NCBI RefSeq assembly: GCF_023051145.1
Contig: NZ_JALKFS010000005.1
Coordinates: 1,612,001 to 1,676,000 of the forward strand
DNA from: Williamsia sp. DF01-3
GTDB taxonomy: Bacteria; Actinomycetota; Actinomycetes; Mycobacteriales; Mycobacteriaceae
Length of the DNA: 64,000 nucleotides
Direction of reading: 5' to 3'
Under the pieces are notes generated by a model. It worked only from the letters and a program-made list of their open reading frames with translations, was not told the origin of the DNA and ran no database searches. The translations under genes and the position numbers were made by a program. Positions 11,045-20,073 of this stretch are shown here, piece after piece (the stretch's first letter is position 1; every line of letters starts with the position of its first letter).

Positions 11045-12553
11045 TCACGTGCCGCAGAACGTCTGAAAGTTCTCGCTGAACACCAGCGGGGCGGGCCCGC
11101 TGTATTCGGACCACTCGTCGCGCCGCTCGAACGGATGCGTGACCACTTCCAGCAACCTCGCGAAGGGACCGAGATCGCCGTCCGTGGCGGCGCGCAACGC
11201 GGCGTCGAGGTGGTGATTGCGCGGAATGTAGATCGGGTTCACGCGGTCCATCGCATCCGCGGCTTCCGGCAGCTCCACCCCCGCGTCCGCCAGAGCGCCG
11301 CGCCATCGTTGTAACCACAAAGCGGTGCGCTCACGAGACAACAGATTGTCCAGGGGTGCGGAGTCCCCGCGGAGTTCATCGGAGAGGGCGCGGAAGGTGC
11401 TCGTCCAATCGACGCCGTGGTCGGCCAACAGAGCGAGGAAGTCGTCGATCAATTCTTGGTCGACGGCTGCGCCGGCCAAGCCGAGTTTTGCCGCCATGCC
11501 CGCCGAGTAGTGACTCGCGTAGCGCGCATCAAAAGTGTTCAGCACTTCGGTCACCGCGGCAATGGCGGCGTCTGGTTCAGAGTCGATCAGTGTCAGTAGG
11601 GTTTCTGCGAGGCGAGCCAGGTTCCACTTCACAACGGCAGGTTGGTTGCCGAACGCATACCGGCCACCGCGGTCGATGGAGCTGAAGACTGCGTTCGGGT
11701 CGAATGCGTCGAGAAAGGCGCAGGGGCCGTAGTCGATGGTCTCGCCCGAGATCGTCGTGTTGTCCGTATTCATCACGCCGTGCACAAAGCCTGCGAGCAT
11801 CCACTGCGCAACCAGCGAGGCCTGCGCATCCACCACCGCATCGAAGAAGGCCAGGTATCGACTGTCTGCACCTTGCGCGGGCAGATCGGCCACTGCCGGG
11901 TAATGGCGGGCGATCGCGTAGTCGGCGAGTGGCTGCAGGATCTCGCCCTGTCGAACCGCGAACTCGAAGGTGCCCACGCGCAGGTGGCTTGACGCAACCC
12001 GCGCGAGGACGGCTCCTGGCTCGAGCCCGTTTCGGCGAACGGCTTGTCCGGTGGCAACCACCGACAATGAGCGGGTCGTGGGGATTGCGAGGGCGTGCAT
12101 GGCCTCGCTGACGAGGTATTCGCGCAGCATCGGCCCGACCACGGCGAAGCCATCGCCGCCGCGGGAGAACGGTGTACGTCCTGAACCCTTGAGGTGCAGG
12201 TCGAGGCGGCGACCGTCGTCGGTCATCAGTTCGCCGAGGAGCAGTGCCCGACCGTCGCCGAGGAGCGGCGTGTATCCCCCGAACTGGTGGCCTGCGTACG
12301 CCATCGCGACGGGCTTTGCCCCGGGTGGCGCTGACGTCCCGGATAGGACGGCGACTCCGTCGGCGGTGCGCAACGTGTCTACATCGAGATGCAGCGACTC
12401 GGCGAGTTGCTCGTTCAGCACCAGCAGGGTGGGGTCGGGTGCGGGAGCGCCCTGCCATGGAACGGTGAGTGCGGTCAGCTCGTCGGCGAATGTGCTCTCG
12501 AGGTCGGCTATCGCGGCCTTTGTGTCCACTGGGGGATGCGGTGTTTCAGCCAT
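11045..12553 (-). CDS. selO: SelO family protein adenylyltransferase (pseudokinase; UPF0061/YdiU)
   Basis: 502 aa. The pattern [20 protein letters not shown] followed by [16 protein letters not shown] and [17 protein letters not shown] is diagnostic for the SelO/YdiU family. [21 protein letters not shown] contains the Asn and Asp used for metal binding in the flipped ATP-binding mode. SelO transfers AMP to Ser, Thr or Tyr residues of target proteins and is linked to redox homeostasis. The E. coli-type protein carries a C-terminal Cys; here the end reads FQTFCGT, so that Cys is present. It is convergent with the padR gene, with 13 bases between the stops. Confidence 0.93.
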
Positions 12554-13605: not shown

Positions 13606-14064
13606 GTGAGCACAAGTTCGAAGCAAGAAGCAGACCATGTTGATCCCCTGGCTCTCGAACGGCAGGTCTGTTTCGCGTTGGCCGTCGCCAACCGCTCGGT
13701 GCTGGCTGTCTACCGGCCGTTGCTCGAACCGCTCAATCTGACCCACCCGCAATACCTTGTGATGCTCGCGCTGTGGGAGCAGTCGCCGCGCTCGGTCAAA
13801 GAGATCGGCCACGCCCTGCAACTCGACTCGGCCACGCTCTCGCCGCTCCTGAAAAGACTGGAGACAACCGGGTACCTGACCCGCCGCCGCGATCCGGCAG
13901 ACGAGCGATTGGCCGTCATCGATCTCACCGCACAGGGTCTCCGAGTCCGCGAGAAAGCACTTCTCATTCCCGATGCGGTCGTCGAGGCTCTCGGCGTCGA
14001 CCTGGACACGCTCGAGCGGCTGCATTCGGTTCTCACGACTGTGAACGCCGCCGCACGGCGCTGA
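13606..14064 (+). CDS. MarR/OhrR-like transcriptional regulator with reactive-cysteine position
   Basis: 152 aa from GTG 13606, preceded by GAGGAAG. The segment ERQVCFALAVANRSV then YRPLLEPLNLTHPQYLVMLA matches OhrR-type peroxide sensors, and Cys22 is in the place of the reactive Cys. The winged helix continues with LQLDSATLSPLLKRLE and the wing RRRDPADERL. OhrR proteins repress organic hydroperoxide resistance genes until the Cys is oxidised. No ohr gene is nearby; the next genes, 166 bases downstream on the same strand, are the mycosporine operon. Control of that operon by oxidative or light stress is therefore an attractive inference. Confidence 0.85.
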   Translation: MSTSSKQEADHVDPLALERQVCFALAVANRSVLAVYRPLLEPLNLTHPQYLVMLALWEQSPRSVKEIGHALQLDSATLSPLLKRLETTGYLTRRRDPADERLAVIDLTAQGLRVREKALLIPDAVVEALGVDLDTLERLHSVLTTVNAAARR

Positions 14065-14189
14065 GTGCGCAAGGCGAACCTCCTTTTCCGAACGACGCTT
14101 GCTTTATAGTTCTGTGACTTTTCGTTACCTTTCCGTTACTTGCGGTCCCATCATGTCGACACATCGGCTGTCCACACTCGAGTTGGTCT

Positions 14190-14230: not shown

Positions 14231-14896
14231 ATGGCTGCCATTCTGTTCGGATCAATCAGCACTCTCGTCGACACCTCAGAGTTTCAGCGTCGTGCATTCA
14301 ACGAAGCCTTCGCCGCACACGGTCTGGACTGGACGTGGGACCGCGAAGAATACCGATCGATGCTGTCCGGTAACGGCGGTGCGCAGCGGATCGCCGATTA
14401 TGCCCAGCTCCGTGGCGAGCAGGTCGACGCCGATGGGATCCATGCCACGAAGTCGGAGATATTTCAGGAACTTCTGAAGAACACGCCGGTCTCGCCGCGA
14501 CCGGGCGTCACGGACGTGATCACAGCCGCACAGGCCAACAACGTCAAGCTGGGCCTGGTCACCACGACATCGCCCGACAATGTCGCTGCGCTCCTCGGCG
14601 CACTCCCGGACGTCTCCCGCGAGGCATTCGACGTGGTGGTCGATTCGGCCAGCGTGGACGCGGGCAAGCCGGACCCTGCGTCCTACCTGTACGCACTCGA
14701 TCAACTCGGGGAGGACGCGGGGTCGTGTATTGCGATCGAGGACAACGTCGGTGGGGTGAAGTCGGCCAATGCGGCTTCGGTCACGTGTGTGGCCTTCCCG
14801 AACGAGAACACCGCGGGCGGCGACTTTGCACAGGCAAGCGAAGTCGTCGACACCCTCGACGCCGACCACCTGCGCGCGCTGACCAGCCGCCGATAG
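14231..14896 (+). CDS. HAD-superfamily (CbbY-like) protein with degenerate motif I
   Basis: 221 aa, ATG 14231 with GAAAGGGA upstream. The overall fold reads as a beta-phosphoglucomutase/CbbY-type HAD: helical cap, then [11 protein letters not shown] (motif II), DAGKPDP (motif III Lys) and [11 protein letters not shown] (motif IV). Motif I, normally DxDGT with the nucleophilic Asp, reads [10 protein letters not shown], so both Asp residues are replaced. Ordinary HAD phosphatase chemistry is thus unlikely. As first gene of the mysA-D operon, 31 bases before mysA, it may bind a sugar phosphate such as sedoheptulose 7-phosphate or play a structural role. That is inference. Confidence 0.8.
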
Positions 14897-14927
14897 TGCC
14901 CCTGATCTGCGAAAGAAAGGTATCTCC

Positions 14928-16154
14928 GTGAGCGCCATCGAAGCACACGTCACTGCCACCGACCGCGCCTTCCATGTCGAGGGTTACGAAAAGATCGAGT
15001 ACGACCTGCTGTATGTCGACGGGGTCTTCTCCGTGGACCAGCCGGAACTGGCAGACAGCTATCGTCGGTACGGGCGCTGCCTGATGGTGATAGACGAGAC
15101 GGTCTATTCGATCTATGGGCAGGACATCCACCGGTACTTCGACCATCACGGGTTGGACCTGGTGATCGTTCCGGTCGGAATCGCCGAAACTGCGAAGTCG
15201 CTCAGCACCTTTGAGACCATCGTGCAGAAGTTCGACGAGTTCGGGCTCGTCCGAACCGAGCCCGTGTTGGTGGTGGGCGGTGGGCTCACCACGGACGTTG
15301 CCGGTTTCGCGTGCGCCAGCTACCGCCGCAACACGCCCTATATTCGTATCCCGACCACGCTCATCGGGTTGATCGACGCGAGTGTGTCGATCAAGGTGGC
15401 GGTCAACCACGGCAAGCACAAGAACCGTCTGGGCGCCTACCACGCATCGCAGAAGGTGTTGTTGGACTTCGCTTTCCTACACAGCCTGCCCGAGGATCAG
15501 GTACGCAACGGCATGGCCGAGCTGATCAAGATCGCCACGGTCGGCAACGCCGAGATCTTCGACATGCTCGATGAGCACGGACCCGAACTGCTGCGCACAC
15601 GGTTCGGCCATCTGGACGGCAGCGCCGAATTGCGCGCCGTGGCAGACCGTCTGACCTATCTGGCCATCGAGACCATGCTTGAGCTCGAGGCACCGAATCT
15701 GCATGAGCTCATGCTCGACCGTGTCATCGCGTTCGGTCACACCTGGAGTCCGACTCTGGAACTGACTCCGCCGGCGCCGTTCTTTCACGGCCATGCCATA
15801 AATATCGACATGGCGTTGTCCACAACACTCGCCGAACGGCGCGGCCTCATTTCGGTGAACGACCGCGACCGCGTGCTCGGTGTCATGAGCCGCCTCGGCC
15901 TGGCTTTGGACAGTCCTTATCTCACAACTGAGTTGCTGGTGTCGGCAACCGATTCCATTCTCAGGACTCGCGACGGTCTCCTTCGAGCTGCAGTTCCGAA
16001 GCCGATCGGTCGGTGCGAGTTCCTCAACGATGTCACCACCGATGAACTGGCCGACGTTCTCACCGCTCACCGGAAGATCTGCTCGGAGTTCGACCGCGAG
16101 GGTGCAGGGATCGAGATGTTCACCGGTGCGCAACTGGCCGACATCGATGGCTGA
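14928..16154 (+). CDS. mysA: 2-demethyl-4-deoxygadusol synthase (sedoheptulose 7-phosphate cyclase)
   Basis: 408 aa from GTG 14928 (AAAGG upstream). A dehydroquinate-synthase-fold cyclase: NAD site [32 protein letters not shown], metal ligands in [13 protein letters not shown] and FHGHAIN. Segments such as [28 protein letters not shown] and [10 protein letters not shown] agree with cyanobacterial DDGS (MysA) as I recall it better than with the EEVS enzymes of aminocyclitol antibiotic clusters. It converts sedoheptulose 7-phosphate to 2-demethyl-4-deoxygadusol, the first step to mycosporines. The stop overlaps mysB by 8 bases. Confidence 0.93.
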
Positions 16155-16974
16155 GGCCGTGGCCACCGTTCCACGGCCCGTCACGCCGTCGACGATCCTC
16201 GCGGCCGAGTTGACGGAATTGTCCCGATTGCTCAACAGCGCACCAGATCTGGACCCGGGACTCAAGGCACGGTTGCGCAAGGCCAGAGATCTCGCTGCCG
16301 GACTGGACCCCTACCTCGACGAGTGCACGACCCCGCAGTCTCCTGAGCTGGCAGCGCTTGCCGAACGGACGCGAGAGGTGGCATGGGACGAGCATGAACC
16401 GGTGTCCGGGTCGCGGTCCCTGGAGCAAGAGATGCTGTCCGGGCACGTGGAAGGCCAGCTGTTGAAGTTTCTCGTACACATCACGCGAGCTCGGCGGGTT
16501 CTCGACATCGGTATGTTCACGGGGTACTCGGCGCTCGCCATGGCTGAAGCGGTACCCGCTGACGGGGAGGTGGTGGCGTGCGAAGTGGACCCGTTCGCGG
16601 CCGACATCGCCCGGCAGGGCTTTGCCGAGTCGGTCGCGGGTGCGCGCATCATCGTTGAGATCGGCCCCGCACTCGACACCCTGCAGCGCCTCACCGGTCG
16701 ATTCGACCTCGTCTTCATCGATGCCGACAAGGCGGGCTATCTCGAGTACTTTCATCAGATCGTCGACAGCGATCTGCTCGCGCCGAACGCCGTGATCGTC
16801 GTCGACAACACGTTGCTCCAGGGAGAGCCCTACGCGCCGAGCATGACCAGGTCGGTCAACGGACAGGCGATCGCCGACTTCAACTGGATCGTCGCCGACG
16901 ACCCGCGGGTGGAGCAGGTGATGCTCCCGCTGCGTGATGGAGTGACGCTTATCCGGCGAAGCGGCACGGAGTAA
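16147..16974 (+). CDS. mysB: O-methyltransferase forming 4-deoxygadusol
   Basis: 275 aa from ATG 16147, inside the end of mysA. A class I, caffeoyl-CoA-type methyltransferase: [39 protein letters not shown] loop [16 protein letters not shown], acidic CEVDPF, metal-site FIDADKAGY and VVDNTLLQG, and the end [18 protein letters not shown]. These match the MysB partner of MysA in cyanobacteria. It methylates demethyl-4-deoxygadusol to 4-deoxygadusol. Overlap with mysA implies coupled translation; six bases separate its stop from the mysC start. Confidence 0.93.
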
Positions 16975-16979
16975 ATGCG

Positions 16980-18281
16980 ATGAGCCTCAACTCGGCGACA
17001 CGCACCCTCGGTGCACTGGCCGCATTGCTCGGCACGCTGCCGGTGGATGTTGCGATCGTCGCCTGTGCACTGATTCGCCGGCCCGCGCGTCCGCACGCCT
17101 CACGGGCGCCGAGGCGCCGGACGGTTCTGATCACCGGCGGGAAGATGACAAAGGCACTCACGCTCGCCCGTGCCTTTCACCTTGCCGGACATCGTGTGGT
17201 GCTGGTTGAGTCGCCGAAATACCGGTTCTCCGGTCACCGGTTCTCGAAAGCGGTCGACCGGTTCCACTGCATTCCCGAATCCACCTCGCCGCACTACGCC
17301 GACGCCCTGCTCGATGTGGTCAAGCGTGAAGAAGTCGACGTGTTCGTTCCGGTCTCCAGTCCCGCGTCCAGCGTTCACGATGCCGACGCCGGCGAGTTGC
17401 TGGCCGGGTTCTGCGAAGTGGTCCACGGCAACTCCCGAACTGTGCGCACCGTCGACGACAAGGCCCGGTTCTCTGAGATCTCGCGTTCCTATGGGGTCCG
17501 AGTGCCCGATTCGCGGCGGATCACCGACCCACAGCAGATCGCCGAGTTCGACTTCCCCGCAGGCCGTGAGTACATCCTCAAGAGGATCGCCTACAACCCT
17601 GTCGGTCGGATGGACCTGCGCAAGCTCTCGCGCGAGACGCCTGAGTGGAATGTGGAGTTCGCGCGGTCTCTGGACATCACCGAGGACGACCCGTGGATTC
17701 TGCAGCAGTATGTGGAGGGGCAGGAGTACTGCACACATGGAACGTCGCGCTCCGGACGCCTGCAGGCCTACGCGTGCTGCGAGTCATCGGCCTTCCAGGT
17801 CAACTACCAGATGGTCAGCAGACCCGAGATCTATTCGTGGGTCGAGGCATTCGTCGGGCAACTCGGCGCCACGGGCCAGTACTCGTTTGACTTCATCGAA
17901 GACGTGGACGGCCGGGTGTACGCAATCGAATGCAACCCGCGCACCCACTCCGCCATCACGATGTTCGCCGGCCACCCTGACCTCGCAGCGGCATACCTGG
18001 ACGACGACCACCCCATGATCACCCCGGTTCCGGGTTCGCGGCCCACGTACTGGATCTATCACGAATTGTGGCGGCTGCTCACCGAACCCGGCAAGAAGCG
18101 ATGCTTCGGTGTCCTCCGCCGGGGTCGCGACGCCATCTACGAATCGTGGGATCCGTTGCCGTATCTGATGGTTCATCACCTGCAGATACCCATCCTGCTC
18201 TTCAGGAGTCTGTACCAGGGAACCGAATGGTCGCGGATCGACTTCAACATCGGAAAGCTTGTCGAGATGGGCGGCGACTGA
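16980..18281 (+). CDS. mysC: ATP-grasp mycosporine-glycine synthase
   Basis: 433 aa. An N-terminal hydrophobic helix (about residues 9-32) is followed by VLITGGKMTKALTLARAFH, KYRFSGHRFSKAV, the ATP-grasp core (EYILKRIAYNPVGR, WILQQYVEGQEYCTH) and IECNPRTHSAITMF with metal-binding Glu and Asn. The end DFNIGKLVEMGGD is also typical of MysC. The enzyme activates 4-deoxygadusol with ATP and adds glycine. The helix suggests membrane association. Its TGA overlaps the mysD ATG by one base (TGATG). Confidence 0.93.
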   Translation: MSLNSATRTLGALAALLGTLPVDVAIVACALIRRPARPHASRAPRRRTVLITGGKMTKALTLARAFHLAGHRVVLVESPKYRFSGHRFSKAVDRFHCIPESTSPHYADALLDVVKREEVDVFVPVSSPASSVHDADAGELLAGFCEVVHGNSRTVRTVDDKARFSEISRSYGVRVPDSRRITDPQQIAEFDFPAGREYILKRIAYNPVGRMDLRKLSRETPEWNVEFARSLDITEDDPWILQQYVEGQEYCTHGTSRSGRLQAYACCESSAFQVNYQMVSRPEIYSWVEAFVGQLGATGQYSFDFIEDVDGRVYAIECNPRTHSAITMFAGHPDLAAAYLDDDHPMITPVPGSRPTYWIYHELWRLLTEPGKKRCFGVLRRGRDAIYESWDPLPYLMVHHLQIPILLFRSLYQGTEWSRIDFNIGKLVEMGGD

Positions 18282-19312
18282 TGGGACCGCTGAATGTCCT
18301 CGTGCTCGTGGGGTCACCGGTCGATGAATTCCGCGCCGACCTCAGTCGTGTCTATGCGCACGGGTTTCTTGCCACGTTCTCCGGGCATGTCGACTACCGG
18401 ATCGAGATCGCTTATGTGTTACCGGACGGGGACTGGAGGTTTCCGTCCGGCCTGACTGACGCGGATATCGCTGCATCGCAACCTGTGTCGATTCCCGACG
18501 CGATGACGTATGTCTTCGACCGGGGTTACGACGTCATGGTTCCCGAGATGTTCTGTCTTCCAGGGATGACGTCCTATCGCTCGTTGTTCGATCTGTTGGG
18601 TGTGGCCCACCTCGGCAATCGTTCCGACCTGATGGCTCTGAGTGCTGACAAACGGCTGACCCGCGCAGTGGTTGCCGCAGCAGGCGTCGCGGTTCCGGCG
18701 GGTGAGGTGCTCCGGGAAGGAGAGAACTACAGCGGCCACCTGCCCGCAGTGGTGAAACCTGTTGATTCGGACAACTCGATGGGGGTGTCGCTGGTGCGGG
18801 AGGGGTCCGCGCTGAAGGCTGCGATCGGCGATGCGCTGGTGTACTCCACGTCTGCGCTCGTCGAGACGTATGTCCCACTGGGACGAGAAGTCCGCTGCGG
18901 CATCATTGTTCGGGACGGGGAACTTGTTTGCTTGCCTCTCGAGGAGTACTCGGTCGACGAGTACGATCATCCCATCCGCTCTCGGGCCGACAAATTGGAG
19001 CGCAACGCGGACGGGCAGTTGTATCTGGTGGCCAAGGACACCGCCAAAGCGTGGATTGTCGACGTCGACGACCCGGTCACCGAGGTGGTGTGGGATGCCG
19101 CCCGGCGATGCCATGCCGCGCTCGGATGTCGTCATTACAGTCTGTTCGACTTCCGTATCGACCCGGCGGGGACACCCTGGTTTCTCGAGGCGGGGTTGTA
19201 CTGCTCGTACTCACCGAGCAGTGTGATCGCTGTGATGGCCTCCGCGGCTGGGATTTCCGTCGAGGAACTGTTCGCCGGCAGCCTTCGAGAACTGGAACGT
19301 GAGGGGCGTTGA
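18281..19312 (+). CDS. mysD: D-Ala-D-Ala ligase-like enzyme adding the second amino acid
   Basis: 343 aa from ATG 18281, sharing one base with the mysC stop. A D-Ala-D-Ala ligase-like ATP-grasp protein: VLVLVGSPVDEFRADLSRVY, PEMFCLPGMTSYRSLFDLLG, ADKRLTRAVVAAAGVAVP, VVKPVDSDNSMGVSLV and the metal site LFDFRIDPAG with FLEAGLYCSYSPSSV, where the usual Glu-x-Asn is Glu-Ala-Gly. MysD attaches Ser, Thr or another amino acid to mycosporine-glycine through an imine, giving shinorine-type molecules. No NRPS-type alternative (mysE) is present. Confidence 0.9.
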   Translation: MGPLNVLVLVGSPVDEFRADLSRVYAHGFLATFSGHVDYRIEIAYVLPDGDWRFPSGLTDADIAASQPVSIPDAMTYVFDRGYDVMVPEMFCLPGMTSYRSLFDLLGVAHLGNRSDLMALSADKRLTRAVVAAAGVAVPAGEVLREGENYSGHLPAVVKPVDSDNSMGVSLVREGSALKAAIGDALVYSTSALVETYVPLGREVRCGIIVRDGELVCLPLEEYSVDEYDHPIRSRADKLERNADGQLYLVAKDTAKAWIVDVDDPVTEVVWDAARRCHAALGCRHYSLFDFRIDPAGTPWFLEAGLYCSYSPSSVIAVMASAAGISVEELFAGSLRELEREGR

Positions 19313-20073
19313 TGCACCAGCAGGTACTCGATCCGATCGGAGTCCGCGTCACGGGGGCACCGCTCGACAAGTGCGATCCGGCACTCGCTGAGGACATCCG
19401 GGGACTCCTCGCCGAACACGGGGTGGTCGTGTTCGATGGCCAGAACATCGACACCCCAACTTTCCTCGCCTTTCTGCAATCGTTCGGCGAGTTGATGTTC
19501 ACCGCGGGCGAGACCCCCGTTCCGGACTTCCCAGATCTCAACGTCATCAGCAATGTCGGACGTACAACTGCTCCGAGGTCCACATTCCACGTCGACACCA
19601 CCTACGTCTCGCATCCTCCGGCGTATACGGCTCTGCGTGCGGTTCGTGTACCCGCCGTCGGCGGGCACACGTTGTTCAGCAACCAGTACGCGGCTTACGA
19701 TTCATTGCCGTCAGACCTTCGGAACGATCTCGAGGGGCGGTTGATGACGCATGTGGTCACCGGTGTCGACCCGGGTGCGGGTGCGGAGACCTGTGCCGAG
19801 CACCCGATTTTCCTCACGCACCCACTCTCGCGGCGCGTTGCGCTGTACCTGACGGCTCCGGCCAGGTGCCGGGCCATCAGTGGCAAGTCCGCGACGGAGA
19901 CGGCGCGCATCGTGCACCTTCTCGTCGCGCATTCGACTGCGCCGGGCAATGTGCTGACACACACCTGGTCCGGGGGAGACGTCGTGATGTGGGACAACCG
20001 GGTTGTGATGCATCGTGCCGATCACAGCGGTGTCATCGGCGACCGGGTGATGTATCGCGGAATGGTCAGATGA
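19312..20073 (+). CDS. TauD/TfdA-family Fe(II)/2-oxoglutarate dioxygenase, last gene of mycosporine operon
   Basis: 253 aa from ATG 19312, again in a TGATG overlap with mysD, so it is part of the operon. The fold features are HxD as FHVDTTY, a distal His in RVVMHRADHSG and a following Arg (DRVMYRG) for 2-oxoglutarate. The family hydroxylates or oxidatively trims small acids, including alpha to amine or sulfonate groups. The known cyanobacterial mycosporine-tailoring oxygenase MysH belongs to the phytanoyl-CoA branch, so this would be a different family in the same position. A role in hydroxylation, decarboxylation or deglycylation of the imine-linked amino acid is inference. Confidence 0.85.
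   Translation: MHQQVLDPIGVRVTGAPLDKCDPALAEDIRGLLAEHGVVVFDGQNIDTPTFLAFLQSFGELMFTAGETPVPDFPDLNVISNVGRTTAPRSTFHVDTTYVSHPPAYTALRAVRVPAVGGHTLFSNQYAAYDSLPSDLRNDLEGRLMTHVVTGVDPGAGAETCAEHPIFLTHPLSRRVALYLTAPARCRAISGKSATETARIVHLLVAHSTAPGNVLTHTWSGGDVVMWDNRVVMHRADHSGVIGDRVMYRGMVR

What the first reader, a model, noticed from the sequence alone, without database searches (positions are those of the whole stretch)
14231..20073. Complete mycosporine-like amino acid (UV sunscreen) operon in a mycolate actinobacterium, with two extra genes
Seen: four genes in the order cyclase, O-methyltransferase, ATP-grasp, D-Ala-D-Ala-ligase-like, joined by 8-base or 1-base overlaps, with a HAD-like gene before and a TauD-like dioxygenase after. 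Known: mysA-mysB-mysC-mysD make shinorine-type molecules in cyanobacteria and a few actinobacteria (Actinosynnema, Pseudonocardia). Inferred: this organism makes a disubstituted mycosporine that is then modified by the dioxygenase, so the product may be new.
Basis: partly seen in the sequence, partly recalled or inferred. Interest (0 to 1): 0.88.

Follow-up and report, generated by a model that had tools for sequence, protein, structure and literature searches.

The report
Bacterial sunscreen operon with dead phosphatase
The window holds a six-gene sunscreen (mycosporine-like amino acid) operon of a kind already reported in actinobacteria, and its first gene encodes a phosphatase-like protein that has lost its catalytic residues yet is strictly conserved next to the pathway, which suggests a job other than phosphate removal.

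Summary
Window 14231-20073 carries, on one strand, HAD - DDGS cyclase - O-methyltransferase - MysC-like ATP-grasp - MysD-like ligase - TauD dioxygenase. The cyclase is a DDGS (PDB DDGS E 4e-165 against EEVS 2e-78). The operon type is not new: the GATOR-GC preprint (PMC11888242) already reports HAD and TauD as conserved extra genes of actinobacterial MAA clusters and cites unpublished work in which the Rhodococcus fascians operon gave shinorine, palythine and palythine-serine. MysD here has the Leu-Ala pair tied to shinorine, so the product is probably a known palythine-type compound. What I did not find in print is that the HAD lacks both catalytic aspartates: motif I is GSIST instead of DxDGT. 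Gly7-Ser8 is invariant in 70 of 70 distinct operon HADs, motifs II-IV are intact, the gene is under strong purifying selection, and it lies directly upstream of the DDGS gene in all 70 distinct loci holding both. It cannot work as a standard HAD phosphatase. I think it is a non-hydrolysing sugar-phosphate-binding partner of the pathway; that role is inferred. One relative with the same lesion lies outside any MAA operon (Roseobacter plasmid).

The parts
14114..14139 (+). Array of three GTNAY boxes (10 and 11 bases apart) upstream of the operon, candidate operator for an OmpR/PhoB-type regulator
   Evidence: 3-4 box array in the window and 16 of 74 other HAD upstream regions (13 distinct), expected 0.015 of 75 in dinucleotide shuffles; the motif was chosen after seeing these sequences. 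Place in own genome C5:1626114-1626139. Regulator class is recalled resemblance.
14231..14896 (+). CbbY-type HAD protein without the catalytic aspartates (motif I GSIST); putative non-hydrolysing partner of the pathway
14928..16154 (+). Desmethyl-4-deoxygadusol synthase (DDGS, MysA)
   Evidence: phmmer: 5tpr E 4e-165, 552.6 bits; EEVS ValA 4p53 267.2 bits; 61% identity to the cyclase of a Nostoc sp. HK-01 plasmid mys cluster
16147..16974 (+). O-methyltransferase (MysB)
   Evidence: Methyltransf_3 E 5.7e-45; 54% to Nostoc HK-01 OMT
16980..18281 (+). ATP-grasp ligase (MysC), mycosporine-glycine formation
   Evidence: NF005315 409.1 bits, cut-off 406; 50% to Nostoc HK-01
18281..19312 (+). D-Ala-D-Ala-ligase-like MysD, predicted serine-preferring
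   Evidence: Dala_Dala_lig_C E 1.3e-16; 53% to Nostoc HK-01; Leu-Ala at the two omega-loop positions of PMC11983340
19312..20073 (+). TauD-family Fe(II)/2-oxoglutarate dioxygenase, predicted palythine-forming enzyme

Best explanation
This is the standard actinobacterial mycosporine-like amino acid operon. Shown by sequence: DDGS, OMT, MysC-type and MysD-type ligases and an intact TauD-family dioxygenase, tightly packed on one strand. Inferred from the characterised homologues: sedoheptulose 7-phosphate is cyclised and methylated to 4-deoxygadusol, glycine is added to give mycosporine-glycine, serine is added to give mainly shinorine, and the dioxygenase hydroxylates one amino-acid arm so that it falls off, leaving palythine or palythine-serine. 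The first gene encodes a CbbY-fold HAD protein that should not hydrolyse phosphate by the HAD mechanism, because nucleophile and acid/base aspartates are replaced by Gly and Ile, while the residues that hold phosphate and metal are kept. My inference is that it binds a sugar phosphate (sedoheptulose 7-phosphate or a close relative) without cleaving it and serves the cyclase step as a carrier, sensor or subunit.
For: DDGS identity; ligases and OMT match a Nostoc mys cluster at 50-54%; shinorine-type MysD pair; dioxygenase triad invariant in 17 of 17. R. fascians D188 MysABC gave mycosporine-glycine in Streptomyces albidoflavus (PMC11284840, passages); whole-operon products shinorine, palythine and palythine-serine are unpublished, cited in PMC11888242 (passages and section 36). 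HAD: G7 and S8 70 of 70, I or L at 9 70 of 70, S10 69 of 70; T111, T113, K146, E170, D171 70 of 70. Non-MAA HADs read at motif I (L095-L099, L103-L106, L108, host's own L034, L035, L036, L038, Acidovorax L141) keep the first Asp. HAD dN/dS 0.044-0.152 in 8 pairs, lower than OMT, MysC, MysD and TauD in 7 of 8. HAD next to and upstream of DDGS, same strand, in 74 of 74 fetched loci with both (69 distinct) and in the window, while TauD changes place. In a 201-genome family sample the 30 genomes with a HAD of 53% or more identity all have DDGS, and 0 of 6 with a 34-36% HAD.
Against: No product or expression was measured. HAD binding to a sugar phosphate is inferred from retained residues only; a scaffold role would fit as well. 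The pathway works without the HAD elsewhere: PMC11888242 found no HAD or TauD in Cyanobacteriota clusters, and two genomes (G083, G150, one genus) have DDGS-OMT-MysC-MysD without HAD and TauD. In one genome of another family (G1139) the HAD sits between a divergent cyclase (38% identity) and OMT, so it is neither tied to canonical DDGS nor always upstream of the cyclase. Partial distance correlations did not single out DDGS as the HAD's partner (0.22 DDGS, 0.47 OMT, 0.32 TauD). In the pair window-L003 the HAD is less constrained than DDGS, OMT, MysC and MysD. A Roseobacter plasmid HAD with the same lesion is not near MAA genes.
Confidence: 0.8

Rival explanations
1. The HAD is a structural partner (scaffold or stabiliser) of DDGS, OMT or TauD and binds no small molecule in its old active site.
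For: Fixed place beside the DDGS gene; 42 positions are invariant in 70 distinct sequences, not only motif residues; partial distance correlation highest with OMT (0.47) and TauD (0.32).
Against: A scaffold does not need motif II Thr, motif III Lys and motif IV Glu-Asp, all invariant.
Confidence: 0.25
2. The HAD is a repurposed enzyme that uses Ser8/Ser10 or the retained metal site for another reaction (for example isomerisation or an editing step on a pathway intermediate).
For: Ser8 invariant in 70 of 70 and Ser10 in 69 of 70; several residues that align with CbbY are kept.
Against: No step of the known pathway lacks an enzyme; the Roseobacter copy and one actinobacterial copy (L092) have Gly at the Ser10 position.
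Confidence: 0.15
3. The dioxygenase makes a compound not yet described.
For: The family (TauD/TfdA) differs from MysH, and its substrate arm is untested; MysI of Nostoc UHCC 0926 is proposed to act on a different carbon (PMC10510106, passages).
Against: The R. fascians operon with HAD and TauD is reported (unpublished, cited in PMC11888242) to give shinorine, palythine and palythine-serine; the MysD pattern predicts shinorine as substrate.
Confidence: 0.12

Closest known systems
Actinobacterial MAA clusters with HAD and TauD (GATOR-GC, PMC11888242; Pseudonocardia alni, Rhodococcus fascians D188)
   Same: Gene content; operon type; wide presence in Actinomycetota
   Different: The preprint names the HAD only by Pfam domain; in the passages and the section I read it does not say that the catalytic aspartates are missing
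Cyanobacterial mysABCD (Nostoc sp. HK-01 plasmid, L140; DDGS 5tpr)
   Same: DDGS, OMT, MysC, MysD at 50-61% identity in the same order
   Different: No HAD or TauD match in the 17.2 kb read; MysD there has Phe-Ser, here Leu-Ala
MysI, TauD/TfdA dioxygenase of Nostoc sp. UHCC 0926 (PMC10510106)
   Same: Same dioxygenase family recruited to MAA synthesis; proposed palythine formation
   Different: MysI sequence not held here, so orthology untested; MysI sits with an NRPS (MysE) and MysF
CbbY, xylulose-1,5-bisphosphate phosphatase (4uar/4uat; PMC10212915, passages)
   Different: Catalytic Asp nucleophile and acid/base replaced by Gly and Ile; beside DDGS rather than Calvin-cycle genes

Membership tests
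MAA (mysABCD) biosynthetic cluster | Cyclase belongs with DDGS rather than EEVS or dehydroquinate synthase | tested here: met
   552.6 bits to DDGS 5tpr, 267.2 to EEVS, 120.9 or less to DHQS. Where EEVS ValA has Asp (VDFGH), 5tpr and the window have Ala (IAYGH/IAFGH); that this is a fingerprint site is recalled, the passages of PMC4426668 only say that two such sites exist. No tree with EEVS was built
MAA (mysABCD) biosynthetic cluster | OMT, MysC-type ATP-grasp and MysD-type ligase in the same operon | tested here: met
MAA (mysABCD) biosynthetic cluster | Makes a UV-absorbing cyclohexenone/cyclohexenimine | not testable with these tools
   No chemistry here; R. fascians D188 MysABC make mycosporine-glycine in Streptomyces albidoflavus (PMC11284840)
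MysH (phytanoyl-CoA dioxygenase-type palythine synthase) | Belongs to the phytanoyl-CoA dioxygenase family | tested here: not met
   The only Pfam match at E <= 0.001 is TauD, E 2.1e-51
MysI / TauD-type MAA dioxygenase | TauD/TfdA fold with intact Fe(II) facial triad and 2-oxoglutarate Arg | tested here: met
MysI / TauD-type MAA dioxygenase | Orthology to Nostoc MysI | not tested
   MysI sequence not available
HAD phosphatase (CbbY subfamily) | HAD core with cap, CbbY-like | tested here: met
HAD phosphatase (CbbY subfamily) | Motif I DxD: nucleophile and acid/base aspartates | tested here: not met
   GSI in window; G7-S8 in 70 of 70, I or L at 9 in 70 of 70
HAD phosphatase (CbbY subfamily) | Motif II Thr/Ser, motif III Lys, motif IV acidic residues | tested here: met
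   T111, T113, K146, E170, D171 in 70 of 70
HAD phosphatase (CbbY subfamily) | Phosphatase activity | not testable with these tools
   Needs assay of purified protein

The most novel reading that the evidence does not exclude
The first gene defines a conserved branch of HAD proteins ('GS-HAD') that lost hydrolysis once and was kept as a non-hydrolysing sugar-phosphate-binding protein serving sunscreen synthesis, a dedicated pseudoenzyme of a natural-product pathway, with at least one offshoot outside MAA operons (Roseobacter litoralis plasmid).
Probability: 0.45. Interest if true: 0.65.

Novelty: new member of a known kind. Interest (0 to 1): 0.43.

Why it matters
The preprint that found the HAD left its role open and suggested it may expand MAA diversity. 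The missing aspartates speak against the obvious reading (a phosphatase) and turn an open question into simple tests: does the protein bind sedoheptulose 7-phosphate, and what does the operon make without it? It also warns that automatic 'HAD-IA family hydrolase' names mislead for this branch. The dioxygenase and MysD evidence give a product forecast (shinorine to palythine type) for many soil actinobacteria.

Tried and rejected
Rejected: cyclase as EEVS or DHQS. Rejected: HAD as a decaying pseudogene (dN/dS 0.044-0.152 in 8 pairs, some dS above 1 and rough). Rejected: HAD lesion as a start-codon or annotation slip, since motif I aligns to CbbY residue by residue and is the same in 70 distinct proteins. 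Rejected: HAD as partner of TauD only. Of 44 genomes found with the DDGS query, 36 have both, 6 have HAD without TauD in the stretch read (G267, G939, G951, G962, G982, G421), 2 have neither (G083, G150), 0 have TauD alone; of the 36, G971 and G1013 have only a divergent TauD (32-33%) and in G664 only residues 133-252 of TauD aligned. TauD elsewhere in those genomes was not searched for.

Led nowhere: the distance-correlation test did not single out a partner; a search for a regulator gene shared by loci with the operator array (16 sources) gave mainly antisense shadow frames and lineage-specific neighbours; the MarR gene before the operon had no match at the blast cut-offs used in any fetched relative except the window's own copy L002; Rfam and tRNA scans were empty; a window pattern search with 11-11 spacing gave no match because the spacing here is 10-11. 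Of the host's own seven HAD matches, L037 gave no blast hit in the script and L039 could not be aligned at motif I. Of 17 plasmid records with a HAD match I read motif I in two (Roseobacter GSIGT, Acidovorax DVDGT). Of 14 phylum-sample HAD matches, 3 weak ones (G1221, G1209, G1114) were not read. Foldseek/VIA lists were not used to exclude any family.

Sampling bias: 23 relatives (L003-L025) were found with the TauD query and 9 loci (L071-L079) were fetched from HAD-query matches, so presence counts are given for the 44 genomes found with the DDGS query. The set of 78 fetched loci plus the window holds 73 distinct DDGS genes; six loci repeat another. One locus (L015) begins inside DDGS, so its HAD could not be seen. 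L109 (G1139) is outside this set.
Full report
What is there. The window carries HAD, DDGS, OMT, MysC-type, MysD-type and TauD genes on one strand at 14231-20073. The host genome is 5.59 Mb; its other DHQ-synthase-family gene lies elsewhere. The nearest homologues are in Williamsia (nearest DDGS rows); that the host is a Williamsia is inference.

Core pathway. The cyclase scores 552.6 bits against the DDGS structure 5tpr, 267.2 against the EEVS ValA and at most 120.9 against dehydroquinate synthases (that 5tpr is the Anabaena DDGS and 4p53 is ValA is recalled, the listing names them 3-dehydroquinate synthase and Cyclase). Against the mys cluster on the Nostoc sp. HK-01 plasmid the four proteins have 61, 54, 50 and 53% identity in the same order. 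At the two omega-loop positions that PMC11983340 ties to MysD specificity (passages read), Nostoc HK-01 has Phe-Ser and the window Leu-Ala, a pattern for shinorine. Leu stands in 78 of 79 aligned rows (all but HK-01, repeats included); the second position is Ala in 61, Val in 11, Ser in 7. The mapping rests on HK-01 numbering matching that of the paper's Np.MysD, which is likely but not checked on the Np sequence.

Linkage and selection. In the 44 genomes found with the DDGS query the HAD is next to DDGS in 42, all 42 with the GS motif; the two without it (G083, G150, one genus) also lack TauD and are nested in the quick DDGS tree, one change for HAD presence, though their neighbour there is a long-branch row. 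In 78 fetched loci the HAD precedes DDGS on the same strand in 74 of 74 that have both (69 distinct), at 8-180 bases between aligned ends in 73 and 577 in one, whereas TauD lies at the end, in the middle, on the other strand, before the HAD or is absent. In a 201-genome family sample the 30 genomes with a close HAD (53% or more) all have DDGS, and the 6 with a 34-36% HAD and 4 same-genus genomes without a HAD match do not. In a 246-genome phylum sample the 4 close HADs are all in MAA operons, one of them (G1139) with a divergent cyclase, 38% to the window's and still nearer DDGS than EEVS, and with the HAD downstream of it. HAD dN/dS is 0.044-0.152 in 8 pairs that share some members: lower than OMT, MysC, MysD and TauD in 7 of 8 and lower than DDGS in 3 of 8; in the window-L003 pair only TauD is higher.

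Interpretation. A HAD without the nucleophile cannot form the phospho-aspartate of this superfamily (established mechanism, recalled). Retention of the phosphate- and metal-site residues argues for binding without cleavage. Since the DDGS substrate is a sugar phosphate (sedoheptulose 7-phosphate, PMC4426668 passages) and the gene is nearly always beside the cyclase gene, I favour a sugar-phosphate-binding partner; scaffold and repurposed-enzyme rivals remain open. A partial distance correlation did not favour DDGS, and this counts against a DDGS-only partnership.

Literature. That the extra genes are known rests on PMC11888242. That I did not find the missing aspartates in print rests on searches of an open-access library, which excludes most subscription journals; supplements were not read.

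Operator. An array of three or four GTNAY boxes (spacing 10 and 11 here, 10 or 11 between the four boxes elsewhere) lies upstream of the operon in the window and 16 of 74 other upstream regions (13 distinct; Williamsia and some Rhodococcus), expected 0.015 of 75, with the motif chosen after the fact. In the host genome the 10-11 pattern has four matches (control, pattern read backwards, one), and only this one has TTTTC/CTTTCC spacers. It resembles sites of OmpR/PhoB-type regulators (recalled); no regulator was identified.

Verdict. Known kind of operon, ordinary product forecast, with one point that deserves a bench test: a conserved dead phosphatase as its first gene.

Noticed in passing
window 14114-14139; upstream of HAD in L003-L008, L011, L013, L019, L021, L023, L024, L074 (and repeats L040, L041, L078): Tandem GTNAY boxes 10-11 bases apart before the operon in Williamsia and some Rhodococcus, likely a dedicated regulator site.
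   Followed up: partly
L139:4989-5660 (Roseobacter litoralis plasmid pROLI81): HAD with the same kind of motif I (GSIGT) outside any MAA operon, next to TrkAH and an L,D-transpeptidase; annotated as HAD-IA hydrolase.
   Followed up: partly
L043 and L046 (genomes G207, G281): HAD-DDGS-MysC-MysD-TauD with no OMT match at the cut-off between DDGS and MysC, so the product may lack the O-methyl group or another methyltransferase is used.
   Followed up: no
L109 (genome G1139), reverse strand: MAA-like operon with a divergent cyclase (38% to the window's DDGS) and the HAD placed between cyclase and OMT; possibly a different ring product.
   Followed up: partly
L069, L074, L091: TauD only partly alignable (L069), TauD-like match at 28% (L074), and DDGS aligned only from residue 170 on with 577 bases to the HAD match (L091): possible frame breaks or sequence errors.
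   Followed up: no
L098, L099: HAD proteins in DDGS-less genomes that keep the first Asp but have odd motifs III and IV, perhaps another inactive HAD branch.
   Followed up: no
window 13606-14064: MarR/OhrR-like regulator just before the operon, with no match beside the operon in the fetched relatives.
   Followed up: partly
window 11048-12553 (-): SelO protein adenylyltransferase near the operon; ordinary neighbour.
   Followed up: no
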